Shown: in pieces, positions 20-16,854 of the stretch
Layout: each line of letters starts with the position of its first letter
Numbering within the stretch: the stretch's first letter is position 1
Origin: Pigoraptor vietnamica
Lineage: Eukaryota; Opisthokonta; Filasterea
Length of the DNA stretch: 21,753 nt
NCBI GenBank assembly: GCA_943704525.1
Contig: CALSCQ010003206.1
Span: forward strand, 1 to 21,753
Direction of reading: 5' to 3'
The notes under the pieces: model-generated
Seen by the model: only the letters and a program-made list of their open reading frames with translations
What the model was told of the DNA's origin: nothing
The model's database searches: none
Translations under genes and position numbers: made by a program

Positions 20-2074
20 TGCGTGTGTCCAACATTATAACAAGCATACCTTCCATGCTGACGGCGAGGCGCCGCGCGGGGTCCTCAAAGTCGCACTTGC
101 GGATGCTTGCGCCGGTCAAATTCGCGCGGCAAAACGACGATCCCTGCAGCTTTGCGCCCTGTGCGTGCGCATAACAGCGGCATAAGTCAGCGCGAGCGAC
201 AAACTACAAGGGCGTGCTCACAGCCAATTTCGAAAACTGCACGCACGTTTGGCATTGAGAGTACACATTGGAGTGTACGCACAACGACAGGGCAAAGGAG
301 GCACATGCATAGACATACGCACGCAAGCACACAATAGCGTCATCGACCCACGTCCAGCTTGGCGCCGCTCAAGTCCGCGCCGTCAAAGCGGCAGCGCTCG
401 AGATTACACATGGAGAGATCAGCGTTTCTCAGCATGGCCATATTGAAGTTGATGTTGCGGAGGTCCAGCCGAGAGAGATCGGCGCACTCAAAGTTCATCG
501 CCTACGAGTGCGTGCACGTGTGTGCGGTAAAAGGAAGCAGTGTGACAAGGGGTTCGAAATTGCATGCGAGCGACCGACTCCCTCGCTCACTCACTCACAC
601 ACATGCACACATACACACACACACGCACACACACACACACACACACACAACACACACACACACACACACACAAACAAACAGTTCAACATATCCTCCTCCT
701 CTCCCTCTCCGCCTCATCCTCGCGCGCACCTGGCAGCGAATGCCCTCGGAAGACCCCGTCATCAGCAAGGCCTTCATCAGTTTGCGACGACCAAGCGGCT
801 TCTCTTCGTCGGGAATGGGCGTGCGCATCTGTCGCGAAATGAGGGACAACATGAGCACCTGTCCAATGGCTGGCTGTGTGACGCCTGTGTGGTAGTGCGG
901 ATGACTGCAATCTCTCTCGTGTGTACGGGCGTGTGTGGTAAGAGTACGTTGTGGGCGTCGTGCTCGTTTGCATACCTTGATAATCGCTTCGACTCCTTCT
1001 ATCGCACTCTCAATGTTGAAAAACCGCGCCTCCTCAAGCACGCCTGTCAGCACTTCGTGAGTAACGGGCCGTTCAAACGCCCCGTCGCCACTCGTGTGTG
1101 CGAATGCGCGTGTGTGTATGTTCGTCCATCGTGCGTGTGGGTGTGCTGTATGCATGTTTTGCGTGACTCAGGCGCACTGACCCTCCGGGTTGATGCCCTC
1201 GTTGAGTATGAGCCGGCCATGGCGAAGAAAGTTCAGCAGCGGCTCAAAGTACTCGGGAGACCGATCGATGAGAAAGGCGCCGTTGTGGTCGACGGCGCTG
1301 TGCCACGCGTCTGCAGCCACAGCATGAGTGAGTTTGAGTGTGCGTGCGTGCGTGTGTGTGTGAATGTGTGTTTATGTGGGCGTGGTGTGTGTGTGTGCGT
1401 GCGTGCTTGTGTGCGTGTGCGTGCGGTGTGTATGTGTGTTTATGTGGGTGTGGGGGGTGTGCGTGTGTGCGTGTGTGCGCGTGTGTGTGTGGGTGCGTGT
1501 GAGTGTGTGCGTGTGTTTGTGTATGTGTGGGTGGGTGGGTGGGTGTGAGTGTGCTTTGAGGACGGAAGAACGTGTGCGATCGTATGAGAGAGGACGGCTG
1601 TGCGTCTTTTGTGTGGTAGTCGGTGCACGTACCATTGGAAAACATGCGCGCAAGCATTGAATTGGGGTCGCGGCAGAGAGTAGTCCTGCAGCATAAAGGG
1701 TAAACGCATACTCAACTGGCCACACAACAGCTCATGCTCACCACCACCACGTGTAAGGGACAACATGGACAGCACTAAGGGACAAAAGGACAGCCCTGAG
1801 CAAGGACAGCACTAGGGGACAGCAAGGGTACTAAGGGACAAAAGGACAGCGCTGAGGGACAAAAGGACAGCACACGCACCTTGTTGTCGAGAACAGCTTG
1901 CCGCCCACATTAAGTGTGACCCAGTCTGTCTGCCGCTCGCCTGCCGAGCCTGTCGTGAAAACGGTGAGCAACGAATTGCGGAAAAATGAGCTCACGCAGT
2001 CAACGAAACTCACATGGCACAGTGTGCACGAGCGCCTTTGAGTGCGCGCTCTCATCGCTCCTCGCGCCGTCCAT
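1..2074 (-). CDS. KCTD9: KCTD9-like BTB/pentapeptide-repeat protein, 3' end missing
   Basis: Eight exons can be joined with consistent phase on the minus strand: 2074-2014, 1949-1880, 1685-1633, 1310-1182, 1043-976, 858-730 (or starting at 873), 501-352 and 143-50. The gene then runs into an intron at the window edge. The roughly 251 residues begin with a short leader, then a T1-type BTB domain (WVTLNVGGKLFSTTR, later AFLIDRSPEYFEPLLNFLRH and VLEEARFFNIES). A linker follows, then pentapeptide repeats of the A(D/N)Lxx type (ADLSRLDLRNINF, ADLSGAKLD, ANLTGASIRKCDFED). This domain order and spacing match KCTD9, whose family acts as Cullin-3 ubiquitin-ligase adaptors. The ATG at 2074 was chosen because it splices in phase through a GTGAGT donor into the BTB exon. 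The ubiquitin-like N-terminal domain of animal KCTD9 is not visible. All introns are GT-AG, and several are filled with CA or TG repeats. Confidence 0.88.
594..676. repeat. (CA)n microsatellite in KCTD9-like intron 6
   Basis: A nearly pure CA tract on the plus strand, with a few interruptions, lies inside the intron at 502-729. In the sense of the transcript it reads UG-rich. Six-frame translation gives spurious His/Thr-rich or Cys/Val-rich ORFs here. Confidence 0.95.
1330..1556. repeat. Long TG-rich tract in KCTD9-like intron 3
   Basis: About 225 bases of imperfect TG/GCGTG repeat on the plus strand fill most of the intron at 1311-1632. In the sense of the transcript it is CA-rich, and so complementary to the UG-rich tract of intron 6. 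Confidence 0.93.
1757..1872. repeat. Degenerate short tandem repeats, GGGACAAAAGGACAGC type
   Basis: Several imperfect copies of a GGGACAAAAGGACAGC-like unit, followed by CCTGAG, GCTGAG or ACTAG variants, occur in the intron at 1686-1879 of the KCTD9-like gene. No coding potential is apparent. Confidence 0.8.
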
Positions 2075-2741: not shown

Positions 2742-5293
<2,552 letters not shown>

Positions 5294-5912
5294 TTTTCCC
5301 TATGGGTTTGATTTCGACGGCAACTCCGCACGTTGCGCGAGCGTCGTCCCAACGTCAATAAACTACCGACCACAGCTGTGACAAGATTTACTCGAAGTGA
5401 GAAAGTGCCAATATGAACACGCGACGGGGGGGAGACGCACGACACACACACACACTGCAGTCACACCGCATACACACACGCGCGACGTAAGCCGTGCGCG
5501 CAGCAAAATCGCACACTAAACTGGCATCAGTGACGCACCCACACACACACACACCACACCACACACACACACACACACACATGGGCCCACAGTCAAGCCA
5601 TAGAGAAGAAAATTGTGGGCTAGGGTGGGGGTCAATTTCTTTATTACATCACAAATATTACGGCACTTCGTTTTTGGTACATTTTCCATAGTGAGCGCCC
5701 GTTATTTTGCAAGCGCGGATCACGAGCCGTCATAATTGGGAAGAGTTTTCCGGGATTATTCCGCGTCAATTCTTGTTACGGCACGCCACGAGCGTATTGT
5801 TACTGAGCCCTTGGTGCGCACACCTTCACCACGACATCTCTACACTTCGGCGCACGACAAAAGTCAGCCTTTGGCCTTTGCTTTGTAAACGTTGTCACAT
5901 GAATTTGTAAGG
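5294..5912. promoter_or_regulatory. Divergent intergenic region between V-ATPase B and CIA2 genes
   Basis: About 620 bases separate the two divergent start codons, so both promoters must lie here or nearby. The stretch contains a CA microsatellite at about 5538-5580 and less GC-rich sequence at about 5630-5780. I see no TATA box I would defend and no further gene. Confidence 0.55.
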
Positions 5913-6824
5913 ATGGATAACGTGAACCCCACTATATATGAGGCCAGTGCGGCGCGCCCTGTGACCGCGAGCGAGGAGGATGAAGGCGTGTACGACCCCG
6001 TCGATCGACGCGAAATCTTCGATATCCGCTTGCCTTCTTGCGCGCGTGTGTGTTGCCAGAGTGTGGGCTTAAAGACAGACGTATTCCCTTGACTGCGAAT
6101 GTGCGCACATCTCATCAGGTGCATCAACGACCCCGAGCACCCGCTGACGCTCGAAGAGCTGAAAGTGGCGCAGGAAGCGCACATTGAAGTCGACGACGAC
6201 CAGAATTTTGTGCGCGTGCAGTTCACGCCGACGATTCCTCACTGCAGCATGGCCACCCTTATCGGGCTGTGCATCCGCGTCAAGCTGTTGCGGTGCCTTC
6301 CGGAGAGGTTCAAGGTGAGTGTGCAAGCGAACACACAAACGGCATACCTTTGCCTGGTGGCAGCGGACTGTGAGCACGAATGGTAAAAAAATTGCCCCTG
6401 TTTGCGATGGGATTCGAACTTACAACTCACCTCCTTGTGTGCAGATTGATGTGTCTATCCGGCCGGGGACGCACGCGTCTGAAGAAGCCGGTGCGTGGCA
6501 TCTCTTGCGTTGCTGTTGTTGCCGTGCAGTGGAACCGCCTCTCGGTTTGGAGGGAAAATGCGGTTGGATCATCCATACCCTGTGTTTGTTTACTCTACTC
6601 CACTCGAAACACTGTGATCGCCTGTGATTCCCCCCTGCGATCCCCTGCTGCAGAGTTGTTATCCAAAACTCGTTGTGTGGTGTTATGTTCATGTTCGTGT
6701 TTTTTGTTCCTTCGCCACTACAGTAAACAAGCAATTAAACGACAAGGAGCGAGTGGCGGCTGCTCTCGAGAACGGTCATCTCCTGGAGGTCGTCAACCAG
6801 TGCTTATCGTCCAAGTCCGCGTAA
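5913..6824 (+). CDS. CIAO2B: CIA2/MIP18-family cytosolic Fe-S cluster assembly protein
   Basis: Four exons (5913-6021, 6109-6314, 6445-6490, 6724-6824) give 153 aa, close to the family's usual length. The family forms the CIA targeting complex with CIA1 and MMS19. That complex delivers [4Fe-4S] clusters to cytosolic and nuclear enzymes such as DNA polymerases and helicases. Signatures include REIFD-LIR at the first junction, [29 protein letters not shown] with the conserved reactive cysteine at residue 82, [34 protein letters not shown], and a short SSKSA tail. Introns 2 and 3 are GT-AG. Intron 1 is AT-AC, of the minor spliceosome type (separate entry). The TAA stop overlaps a good GTAAG donor, which leaves room for an alternative longer C-terminus. 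Confidence 0.95.
6022..6108 (+). other. U12-type AT-AC intron in the CIA2 gene
   Basis: The 87-base intron starts ATATCCGCTT, near the minor-class 5' consensus ATATCCTT, and ends GCGCAC. TCCCTTGACT at 6085-6094 matches the U12 branch consensus TTCCTTRACY with one mismatch. Its presumed branch A at 6092 is 16 bases from the 3' end, inside the normal window. Splicing here joins G to AT CTC ATC AGG and restores the invariant D-L-I-R of the family. No GT-AG pair nearby does this without inserting or losing residues. Confidence 0.88.
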
Positions 6825-13518: not shown

Positions 13519-16237
13519 TCAGAGAGTCCACAAGACCGAGGCTGCCTTCTCGTCCCCAGCCTCTGCCGCACGCCTGAGCAGCTCATTGCCACGCTGCTCA
13601 TCCATTGCCATCCCAAACCCGCCCAAGTAGCACTTCCCGAGCAGCGCGACTGTCTCCGCGGTCGGGAGGTGGTAGTCGACGACCCTCTTCAGCCACTTGA
13701 ACGATTCTGTCACGTCCCTTTCGACGCCGTCGCCCACGCCCAGAATTGTCGAGAGCCGCTCCATCGCCTCCAGGTCGTTCAGTTCGGCCGCCTTCCGCCA
13801 GAGGCGCACGGCGCGCGCAATGTCCTTCTTCACGCCATCTCCTTGCTCCAGCGTAGTAGCGGCAGCGCACAGCGCGCCCGTGTGCCCCGCCTCGCCCGCG
13901 CGCTCAAGCCAGACGAGGCCCTCTGCCACGTTCTGTTTCACACCGCAAAACCCCTCGCACAGCATCATGCCATAGGAGAACATTGCTTCTGGCCCGCTCC
14001 GCCTCACACCAACCTGTAACCGAGGGCCATACGTCGGGCTCCAGGACGCCCTTATTGTGCAACATCACGAGCGCCTTCTGCGCGTCAACGTTGCCGCCCT
14101 CCGCCATCAGCAGCAACCAGCGGACAATTGCCCGCACATCCTTGCAGTTCTTGCCCTTCGTGGCGGCAGCCGACAGATGTTGACCGTAGAATCGAATTGC
14201 CTCGCCGTCGCCACGCGATGCAGCCGCAAAGCGCTCCGCGTCACTCCATCCATCAAACCGAGGGTTCACACAATCGAGCATGTTCGCGATGTTGTCCGCC
14301 TCCGCGTGCCCCGAGAACCGCCGACTCGCGCACAAGGCGCCGCACCTCGTCCAAGTTCTTCGGCAGAACGCCCGCTACGCCCGTCAGGTGCAGGCACCCG
14401 TACAGGAGCATGCCGGTGGGATCCCGCATCGCCGACGAACGCCTCACAAGCTCGACAGCCTCTTCCGGCCCCGACGTGTGCCGCATCCAGGTTTGTCGGA
14501 TCGCCACAAAATTTTTGTAGAGATTGAAGCTCGCCGGCAAAATTTTCTCGGTACGGCTGGCATACAGCGCGTACAGCACATTGCACGAGGCGGCGTGACC
14601 TGCGGCCGCGGCGTGGCGTAGGCGGCGCATTCCCTCGGCCACGTCCTGTCGAAAGCCATTGCCTAAGAGACGTTGCAACCCCTCTGCGTGCAGGGCCGCG
14701 AGGTCCACAGTTGCTGGCTGCACGTCGGCTGTAGGAGCTCGCACGGGCGAAGTAGGGCTTCCCTCGGGCGGGTAAGACCTGTCGCCCAAGAACTGAAGGC
14801 ACTCCGGCGGCATCTGCGAAGGCGAGGCCAAAAATTCAGCCGCACCCACGTCCCCAGCTTCCGCCGCACGCCGCATCAGCGCCATGCCGCGCTGAGCGTC
14901 CTTCGCCACACCCTTGCCGAAGATGTACGCCGCCCCGAGCATCCTGACCGTCTTCGCGTCCTGGCCGGTGATAGTCGACCACCTTCTTCAGCCACGCGAA
15001 CGCTTCGGCCTCGTTCCTCTCGACGCCGCACAACGCCACCGAGAGCACGGACGCGAGCCCTCCCATCGCCTCAGAGTCGTTCAAGTCGGCGGCCTTTCGC
15101 AAGTGACGCACGGAGCGCGCCAAGTCCTGTTTCCCGCCCTTCATCATGAGGACGGTCGCGGCGGTCGTGAGGGCCTTTGTGTGCCCCGCCTCGCCAGCGC
15201 GCTCAAGCCAGACGAGGCCCTCAGCCTCGTCCAGCTCTGCGCCGCGCGACCCCTCGCACAGCATCAGCCCGTAGCTGTACTGGTCCAGCCGATCCCCTTC
15301 CATCGCCTCCAACCGATGCCACTGGGTAACGGCCGGCTCGACGTCCTTGTCCAAAGCGCCCATGTCGTGCAGCCGCACGAGCGCCCTCTGCGCCGCACGG
15401 TCACCGCGCTCCTCCGCCGCCCACTTCAGCCAGAGCACTCCCTCCCGCACGCGGTCGTTCCCCTTTTCCTCGGCGAGTTGCTCCAGTCGCAAGCCGTAGC
15501 ACCGAATCGCATCCGCGTCACCGCGCACCGCAGCCGCGTAAACGTCGTCGACGCTCATTCCGTTGAAAGGAGTCTGCGTATACTCCATCTCCCTCACCAC
15601 GTGAGTCGAAAACTCGTGCCCGAGAGCGGCCGACTCGTGTACCATGCGAATACCTTCGACGCGAACCTTCGTGAGGATACCCGGCACGCCCTTCGTAAGC
15701 AGCGTTCCGTAGATGAGCAGGCCCACCGGATCCCGCACCTCCGCCGATTGCCTCGCGAGCGCCACCGCCTCGTTATTAAGCTCCTTCAGCAGTTCCTCAC
15801 TCCGGCACGGCATCTTCGTTGACTTGCAGGTCGAGTAACAGCGCCGCAAGCGTGTTGCACGAGGGTATGTGGCCAGCAGCCGCGGCACGGCGAAGAATGC
15901 GAATACCCGCGGACATGTCCTTGCGAATTCCGTGGCCGTTAACGAGTTGCACCCCATGGGCGTGCAGCGCGGCGAGGTCAACCACCGGCGCCGACTCTGT
16001 CGCTGGATGCGCGTTAACACTTGAAACGCTTGTTAGAAACGAAGCACCGCCCTTCGCGTCGGTGGAAACACAACGAGCGCTCAGCGACGAATGGGAGCGC
16101 GCGAACCCCACGAAAGCAGGAGTGCGATGCGCAGTCGCGTGGAACGGAGGGACGTCGAGGGCGACAAGCGACGACCGCGTGTTACCGACGCGCCGCAGGG
16201 GCACGGCGCGCGCCGCCCTCAGACACAGCCGCAGCAT
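13519..16237 (-). CDS. Sel1-repeat protein, duplicated halves, four frame breaks
   Basis: Five overlapping minus-strand frames (16237-15797, then to 14836, 14253, 13904 and 13519) read as one protein if a single base is skipped at each of four points. The total, 2719 minus 4 bases, is exactly 905 codons. The N-terminus (MLRLCLRAARAVPLRRVG) is rich in Arg, Ala and Ser without acidic residues, as in mitochondrial targeting peptides. The rest is Sel1-like repeats (for example EGLVWLERAGEAGHTKAL, RGMALMRRAAEAGDVGAAEF), alpha-helical solenoids that usually scaffold protein complexes. Two homologous halves start at VVDLAALHAHGV (15985) and VDLAALHAEGL (14708). The gene has no introns, unlike its neighbours. 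It may be a functional gene with sequence errors, a young pseudogene or a retrocopy. The stop is TGA at 13519-13521. Confidence 0.75.
13522..14708 (-). repeat. Sel1 gene, unit 2 of the internal duplication
   Basis: About 1.19 kb encoding VDLAALHAEG, MRDPTGMLLYGCLHL, SYGMMLCEGF, AEGLVWLERAGEAGHTGAL and ending RRAAEAGDEKAASVLWTL. It is diverged from unit 1 by many substitutions, so the duplication is not recent. Confidence 0.85.
14829..15985 (-). repeat. Sel1 gene, unit 1 of the internal duplication
   Basis: About 1.16 kb encoding VDLAALHAHG, then VRDPVGLLIYGTLL, SYGLMLCEG, AEGLVWLERAGEAGHTKAL and ending RRAAEAGDVGAAEF. Each block recurs in the same order in unit 2, at protein level. Confidence 0.85.
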
Positions 16238-16854
16238 TGTTGATGCGACCGAGTAGAGCTCTCTTCGACGAACAAAGCGGACTCGCGAGCTGTTGTGCTG
16301 TGTTTTCTACGCGTGTGTTTCTGTTTTCCCACCCATTTTTTTTGGTCGTCGGGTGGTCCTGTTACTGCGCCGCAAAAATCAACAGAACACTCGTGTTGTC
16401 CAACCCTCACCCTATGCTAAACGCCAAGTGACGAAAGGTTATCTTGCTGACGCGCACACAACGTGTCGCTGCCATTCCTTCGCTCCAAGTCCAATGACAC
16501 ACGTCAAACGTCGCTTCCGTCGCGGCCATGTGGGCGACCATGAGGACGCAATTGCTTGGCGTGTGTTGGTGTTAACGCGAACTGAAGGGTCAGTGCGAAG
16601 GGCAAATGGCCGCCATTAACGAAGTGAGTCCTATGTTTGTTGCTGTTAAGCGACCCTCCTCCTTGGTTCCAGCCACATTGTCTCGATGGGCTAACCTCGA
16701 GTGCTCTTCGTGTGCGATCTCTCCGTTTTTCTCTCCTCTTTTGCGAACTGAGCGACTTCAGCCGCATCATCCCACAATAACTTCATACCCCTTTGACTCG
16801 TAGCTGTGGTCGGCGGACCCTCGTGCGTTTGCGCATGTCCTCCCAGCACGCACA
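16238..16854. promoter_or_regulatory. Divergent region between Sel1 gene and helicase gene
   Basis: About 617 bases lie between the two divergent start codons, so both promoters probably lie here. I see pyrimidine-rich stretches (about 16715-16745) and a T run near 16336, but no clear core promoter element and no gene. Confidence 0.5.

What the first reader, a model, noticed from the sequence alone, without database searches (positions are those of the whole stretch)
6022..6108. Minor-spliceosome (U12-type) AT-AC intron in the CIA2 gene
Sequence shows ATATCC at the 5' end, AC at the 3' end and TCCCTTGACT with the presumed branch A 16 bases upstream. These are three independent U12 hallmarks, and splicing restores the conserved D-LIR. 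Major-class introns cannot restore it. The organism would therefore keep U11, U12, U4atac and U6atac snRNAs, a patchily distributed trait that also narrows its identity.
Basis: partly seen in the sequence, partly recalled or inferred. Interest (0 to 1): 0.7.

Follow-up and report, generated by a model that had tools for sequence, protein, structure and literature searches.

The report
AT-AC minor intron with shifted code
A gene for iron-sulphur protein assembly carries a rare AT-AC intron that looks made for the cell's second, minor splicing machine, and in this organism the recognition sequence of such introns appears to have shifted together with one of that machine's RNAs.

Summary
Window 6022-6108 (ATATCC...AC, branch site TTCCCTTGAC) interrupts CIA2 (5913-6824). 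Removing it restores REIFDLIR; none of 47 local frame-keeping GT/GC-AG alternatives does. The same genome holds U12, U6atac and U4atac snRNAs above Rfam cut-offs. U11 was not found.

The surprise is the 5' splice site: ATATCCGC, not the usual RTATCCTT. A genome search leaving +7/+8 free gave 18 places, 13 with +7G. Eight of the 13 give a known protein across the junction; none of the other five does above a cut-off as called, and one of those lies inside a real ATATCCGC intron. GT-AG minor introns with GTATCCGC also occur. U6atac has changed in the matching place: AAAGGA at 11-16 became AGCCGA. C13 can pair +7G and G12 +8C/T, but C14 cannot pair +6C, and computed helices are weak. I read this as a natural rewriting of the minor-intron 5' splice-site code, with U6atac changed alongside. 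U11 and RNA evidence are missing.

The parts
5913..6021 (+). CIA2 (MIP18/FAM96B-type) exon 1, ATG to phase-1 junction
   Evidence: spliced translation; PDB match 6tbl E 1.1e-66 for the whole product
6022..6108 (+). U12-type AT-AC intron 1, 87 nt
6022..6029 (+). divergent minor 5' splice site ATATCCGC (usual RTATCCTT)
   Evidence: usual rule from PMC2846911
6084..6093 (+). branch-site motif TTCCCTTGAC, branch A at 6092, 16 nt before the intron end
   Evidence: the U12 snRNA of this genome keeps GAGTAAGGA
6109..6314 (+). CIA2 exon 2
6315..6444 (+). major-type GT-AG intron 2 (GTGAGT...CAG)
6445..6490 (+). CIA2 exon 3
6491..6723 (+). major-type GT-AG intron 3 (GTGCGT...CAG)
6724..6824 (+). CIA2 exon 4 with stop TAA 6822-6824

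Best explanation
Intron 6022-6108 is removed by a U12-dependent (minor) spliceosome whose 5' splice-site code has shifted. In this lineage minor introns begin ATATCCGY or GTATCCGY instead of RTATCCTT. U12 recognises the unchanged branch site. U11 with its proteins is presumed to recognise the first six bases. When U6atac replaces U11, its changed segment (AGCCGA at 11-16 in place of AAAGGA) can pair C13 with +7G and G12 with +8C or +8T. Shown: the intron, the three snRNAs, the ATATCCGY/GTATCCGY class in several conserved genes, and the U6atac change. Inferred: that splicing occurs, that the U6atac change and the intron change compensate each other, and everything about U11.
For: Machinery: U12, U6atac and U4atac are present, one copy reported of each (counts are lower bounds). 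U4atac and U6atac segments form an intermolecular duplex of -31.1 kcal/mol. All three genes share a GTCCCAYAAG box about 66-72 nt upstream, and its core TCCCAYAAG also led to this genome's U2 and U4. Class: where +7/+8 were left free, 13 of 18 places have +7G (binomial p 3.0e-4 at background 0.30). At +8 these 13 have C in 10, T in 2, A in 1. Homology: products of all 18 places were scanned (L023 only in corrected form). Eight of the 13 have a strong match spanning the junction: FKBP, lysine methyltransferase, sedlin, IPP transferase, Rad51, PI3K adaptor domain and CIA2 over Pfam cut-offs, and mercaptopyruvate sulphurtransferase by PDB sequence, E 2.5e-23. Of the five without +7G none spans above a cut-off as called, and one (L023) lies inside a 183-nt ATATCCGC intron whose spliced product gives an AAA domain across the junction. 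GT-AG forms with GTATCCGC sit in SRPK, urocanase and Urb2 genes. U6atac differs from the Rfam consensus in its first 28 positions only at 12, 13 and 14. Human U6atac GG14/15CC suppresses 5' splice-site CC5/6GG (PMC4980772 passages), which sets the register.
Against: C14 of U6atac faces +6C, a mismatch. Computed helices: with the CIA2 site AUAUCCGCUU -4.6 kcal/mol, better than a classical U6atac (-3.3); but with AUAUCCGUCC only -1.0 and with GUAUCCGCCC only -2.5, both weaker than a classical U6atac (-3.3 each). A site AUAUCGGCUU would pair far better (-10.8). My genome patterns for introns all required CC at +5/+6, so introns of that kind were not surveyed genome-wide. In loci already held, with +5/+6 free but +7/+8 fixed as GY, 22 of 30 candidates had CC and none CG, but most of those loci had been fetched by CC patterns. 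U11 was not found in five searches. Five of the 13 +7G places have no junction-spanning match. No transcript data are available.
Confidence: 0.68

Rival explanations
1. A U12-type AT-AC intron with a changed 5' site whose +7/+8 letters have nothing to do with U6atac pairing. Recognition rests on U11, U11-48K and the branch site.
For: +1 to +6 and the branch core are classical; PMC3584512 passages say the first three nucleotides are read by U11-48K; U6atac C14 does not pair with +6C, and the helices with AUAUCCGUCC and GUAUCCGCCC are weaker than with a classical U6atac.
Against: +7 is G in 13 of 18 places not selected for it and +8 is C or T in 12 of those 13, which is a new consensus and not decay; U6atac is changed at 12-14 only within its first 28 positions, two of which face +7 and +8.
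Confidence: 0.26
2. A major-class GT-AG or GC-AG intron lies nearby and the protein differs slightly at D-LIR.
For: 47 frame-keeping alternatives exist, for example 6050-6118 (GT-AG) and 6032-6118 (GC-AG), which keep CINDPEHP.
Against: None of the 47 gives IFDLIR, which matches galla-2 exactly; the same intron class restores seven other protein families elsewhere.
Confidence: 0.03
3. The snRNA genes belong to a contaminant and the intron class to something else.
For: The assembly is unnamed and in 1,395 contigs.
Against: Shared upstream box in U12, U4atac and U6atac, whose core also led to U2 and U4; G+C of the snRNA loci 0.57-0.63 is close to the window's 0.585.
Confidence: 0.03

Closest known systems
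U12-type AT-AC introns of human, plants and oomycetes
   Same: AT-AC ends, 5' box beginning ATATCC, branch motif close to the 3' end, U12/U4atac/U6atac snRNAs in the genome
   Different: +7/+8 are GC or GT where the published rule is RTATCCTT (PMC2846911, section 11 read)
Physarum polycephalum minor spliceosomal system (Larue, Elias and Roy 2021)
   Same: a lineage-specific transformation of minor splice-site motifs
   Different: known to me only from its title and citing passages and recall; there over 20,000 minor introns with divergent types; I have not seen its 5' consensus or U6atac
Blastocystis minor introns (PMC5608401 passages; PMC10639083 section 24)
   Same: AT-AC-rich minor introns in a protist
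   Different: those have a median of 39 nt and all four snRNAs were found; the introns here were found in length-limited searches, mostly 66-97 nt, one of 183 nt, and U11 is missing
Laboratory suppressor system U6atac GG14/15CC with 5' site CC5/6GG (PMC4980772 passages)
   Same: U6atac and 5' splice site changed together in the same helix
   Different: engineered in mammalian cells at 14/15 and +5/+6, with U11 changed as well; here natural, at 12/13 and +7/+8, with 14 left mismatched and U11 unknown

Membership tests
U12-type (minor) intron | AT-AC or GT-AG ends with RTATCC at +1 to +6 | tested here: met
   ATATCC...AC at 6022-6108
U12-type (minor) intron | TT at +7/+8 (RTATCCTT rule, PMC2846911) | tested here: not met
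   GC at 6028-6029; genome-wide +7G in 13 of 18 places. I therefore call it a variant; membership rests on the other features and on the snRNAs
U12-type (minor) intron | branch motif like TTCCTTRAC (recalled consensus) shortly before the 3' end | tested here: met
   TCCCTTGAC at 6085-6093, 8 of 9 letters, branch A 16 nt before the end
U12-type (minor) intron | junction shown by RNA | not testable with these tools
   no transcript reads available; protein homology only
Minor spliceosome in the same genome | U12 snRNA | tested here: met
   73.8 bits, cut-off 53
Minor spliceosome in the same genome | U6atac snRNA | tested here: met
   81.4 bits, cut-off 33
Minor spliceosome in the same genome | U4atac snRNA | tested here: met
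   64.0 bits, cut-off 53
Minor spliceosome in the same genome | U11 snRNA | tested here: inconclusive
   no Rfam match at E up to 1, 39 of 1,226 candidates scored; no accepted candidate among promoter-box patterns
Minor spliceosome in the same genome | U11/U12 proteins (65K, 48K, 35K and others) | not tested

The most novel reading that the evidence does not exclude
The minor spliceosome of this organism has rewritten its 5' splice-site code. U6atac letters 12-14 changed from AAG to GCC while the minor introns moved from RTATCCTT to RTATCCGY, and U11 has either changed to match or been replaced. It would be a natural counterpart of the laboratory U6atac/5' splice-site suppressor experiments.
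Probability: 0.57. Interest if true: 0.78.

Novelty: new variant of a known kind. Interest (0 to 1): 0.62.

Why it matters
The minor 5' splice site is known for its high conservation (PMC3584512 passage), so it is unclear how such a code could change: the introns and the snRNA would have to move together. A genome with a recurrent new consensus and a U6atac altered opposite it would be a natural case of that change, and it can be tested by swapping two or three letters in an snRNA. If true, it also suggests (inference) that surveys scoring introns with a human-like RTATCCTT matrix may under-count minor introns in such lineages.

Tried and rejected
Major-class alternatives in CIA2 were enumerated locally: 47 keep the frame, none restores IFDLIR. 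Chance was rejected on the reversed-pattern controls (22 rows against 3; 31 against 9).

U11: the Rfam model gave nothing at E up to 1. Patterns from the shared upstream box to a predicted 5' end or Sm site: one search gave 14 rows against 9 in the control, one search gave 2 against 5 (one of the two, L082, was not looked at), one search gave 2 against 1 (U12 and U4atac only), one search gave 10 against 0. Of those 10, four are U12, U4atac, U2 and U4, one is L071, and five look like chance. L071 carries the box, an Sm-like stretch and a 3' stem-loop; I considered it as U11 and did not accept it, because nothing near its likely 5' end matches ATATCCGC well. My Rfam scan covered only part of it, since I took coordinates on the wrong strand; the whole locus had been scanned without a match.

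V-ATPase B in the window is closest to 'brain isoform' chains among PDB entries, which does not place it.

The idea that the changed U6atac pairs better with every new site was tested and held only for the CIA2-like site.

Homology scans, misses included: one search held 10 products, held 8, held 9. Of the 13 +7G places, five have no match spanning the junction (L009, L010, L016, L020, L021); L010 has weak matches, one on each side. For L012 (Rad51) the upstream exon is only 8 nt, so the match before the junction is under three residues. Of the five places without +7G, L005 and L025 gave nothing; L017 and L018 gave matches across the junction only below the families' cut-offs (Morc6_S5 E 0.0028; Sensor E 0.021, PRIMA1 E 0.03), and L018 a C2 domain downstream of it; L023 was scanned only with its upstream ATATCCGC start. 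One or two readings per place were scanned. Of the 19 places that were not already, I scanned seven (L026, L027, L030, L035, L038, L042, L050); three span (L038 and L042 by Pfam, L030 by PDB sequence only); 12 were not scanned.

Full report
What is there. The window lies in a 32.5-Mb assembly of 1,395 contigs, species not given; its genes are eukaryotic. At 5913-6824 on the + strand is a four-exon gene for CIA2 (MIP18/FAM96B family). Its product of 153 aa matches MIP18 family protein galla-2 (PDB 6tbl, E 1.1e-66) over residues 2-151. Introns 2 and 3 are ordinary GT-AG introns; intron 1 (6022-6108) begins ATATCCGC and ends GCGCAC. The branch motif TTCCCTTGAC sits at 6084-6093.

Why the junction is right. 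Reading through meets a stop. Splicing at 6021/6109 restores [16 protein letters not shown], which aligns without a gap to REIFDLIRNINDPEHP. Among 47 GT-AG or GC-AG introns in a local enumeration that would also keep the frame, none gives IFDLIR. On letters alone the junction could slide by up to two bases, because AT stands at both ends; the AT-AC choice is the one that matches known minor introns.

The machinery. The same genome contains U12 (L001, 73.8 bits), U6atac (L002, 81.4) and U4atac (L003, 64.0), each above its Rfam cut-off, one match reported for each (the tool says counts are lower bounds). The U12 branch-binding stretch GAGTAAGGA is present. Segments of U4atac and U6atac pair with each other at -31.1 kcal/mol. 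All three genes carry GTCCCAYAAG about 66-72 bases upstream. A search from the core of this box plus an Sm-like site gave 10 rows, 0 in the control; they include U12 and U4atac, and U2 and U4 by Rfam, which ties them to one genome. U11 was sought five ways and not found.

The shifted 5' site. The published rule for minor introns is RTATCCTT (PMC2846911, section 11 read). A pattern that fixed ATATCC, the branch core and AC but left +7/+8 free gave 22 rows, 18 distinct places. Thirteen have +7G (p 3.0e-4), and at +8 these have C in ten, T in two, A in one. Only one of the 18 has TT (L025), and its product matched no Pfam family. All 18 were translated and scanned. Eight of the 13 +7G places give a known protein across the junction: L004 FKBP, L006 lysine methyltransferase, L008 sedlin, L011 IPP transferase, L012 Rad51 (upstream exon only 8 nt), L014 PI3K adaptor domain and L024 CIA2 over Pfam cut-offs (CIA2), and L007 mercaptopyruvate sulphurtransferase by PDB sequence (its Pfam match is below the cut-off). 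The other five +7G places (L009, L010, L016, L020, L021) have none that spans. Of the five places without +7G none spans above a cut-off as called; L017 and L018 have sub-threshold matches that do. L023 turned out to be an inner look-alike of a 183-nt intron that begins ATATCCGC and whose product gives an AAA domain across the junction.

GT-AG members. The pattern TATCCGY...CCTTRAC gave 31 places, 9 for the reversed control. Of the 19 not already, seven were scanned and three span a family: SRPK kinase (L030, PDB sequence, no Pfam match), urocanase (L042) and Urb2 (L038). L035 seems to carry two such introns in one gene, by reading frame only.

The matching change in U6atac. Against the Rfam consensus, the first 28 positions of this U6atac differ only at 12, 13 and 14: AAAGGA at 11-16 reads AGCCGA. 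In mammalian cells U6atac GG14/15CC, together with U11 GG6/7CC, suppresses the 5' splice-site change CC5/6GG (PMC4980772 passages). By antiparallel pairing, 14 then faces +6, 13 faces +7 and 12 faces +8. C13 can therefore pair with the new +7G, and G12 with either C or T at +8, which is what is mostly seen. C14 does not pair with +6C. The computed helix is -4.6 kcal/mol for AUAUCCGCUU (CIA2) against -0.9 for AUAUCCUUUU, and a classical U6atac would give -3.3 for the CIA2 site. But it is only -1.0 for AUAUCCGUCC and -2.5 for GUAUCCGCCC, both weaker than with a classical U6atac (-3.3 each), and -10.8 for a hypothetical AUAUCGGCUU. This is the weak point of the model. My genome patterns required CC at +5/+6, so ATATCGGY introns were not surveyed; in loci held, with +5/+6 free and +7/+8 fixed as GY, none of 30 candidates had CG, against 0 candidates in the reversed control, but most loci had been chosen for CC.

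Mechanism and judgement. I conclude that the intron is spliced by a minor spliceosome and that this lineage uses RTATCCGY as its minor 5' site, with U6atac changed alongside. The intron identity is close to certain (about 0.95); the joint statement with U6atac co-evolution is about 0.68; U11 is open. Review passages say U11 does not pair with the first three intron bases, that U11-48K reads them, and that U6atac replaces U11 (PMC3584512). One possible reason that +6C stays while U6atac C14 cannot pair with it is that U11 holds +4 to +6 and U6atac now contributes at +4, +5, +7 and +8; this is inference.

Novelty. I searched the held literature for minor introns in protists, for U6atac and splice-site co-change, and for the string ATATCCGC. 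Several answers list only part of the papers found, 10 of 443 are listed, none with the string. I read passages or sections of PMC10639083, PMC2846911, PMC5608401, PMC3584512, PMC4980772, PMC10228655 and PMC8329584. I saw no report of this 5' site or of a natural U6atac change at 12-14. The nearest is the Physarum system, which I know only from citing passages and recall. PMC10639083 remarks that Cyanophora may have a transformed minor machinery. Most subscription papers are not in the library, so an earlier report cannot be excluded.

Noticed in passing
L059 1435-1508 (-) and L064 about 1425-1508 (-): Two box-plus-TATATAAGG genes whose transcripts look like Y RNAs (GGTCCGG...GGGTTATC...CTCGACCG, T-run). 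L059 matches the nematode sRNA family RF01656, 41.4 bits over a cut-off of 38; L064 has no Rfam match over a cut-off. Y RNAs outside animals and bacteria would be unusual (recalled; PMC4726728 start of abstract seen).
   Followed up: partly
L071, reverse strand, from about 1560 of the reversed locus: An unidentified small-RNA-like gene with the same upstream box, an Sm-like stretch, a strong 3' hairpin and a T-run; no Rfam match.
   Followed up: partly
upstream of U12, U4atac, U6atac, U2, U4 (L001, L003, L002, L073, L070): Shared promoter box TCCCAYAAG about 64-72 bases upstream, resembling the Dictyostelium DUSE and plant USE boxes (recalled).
   Followed up: partly
L035, 1303-1445 and 1500-1594: Apparently two GT-AG minor introns with GTATCCG in one gene, by reading frame only.
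   Followed up: partly
window 2742-5299, - strand: Multi-exon V-ATPase subunit B gene; exons joined by eye match 'brain isoform' subunit B, E 2e-279.
   Followed up: partly
window 13519-16306, - strand: Several open frames with what look by eye like Sel1-type repeats in the ORF list; not scanned.
   Followed up: no
window 5428-5582 and other places: Runs of CA-type microsatellite in intergenic DNA.
   Followed up: no
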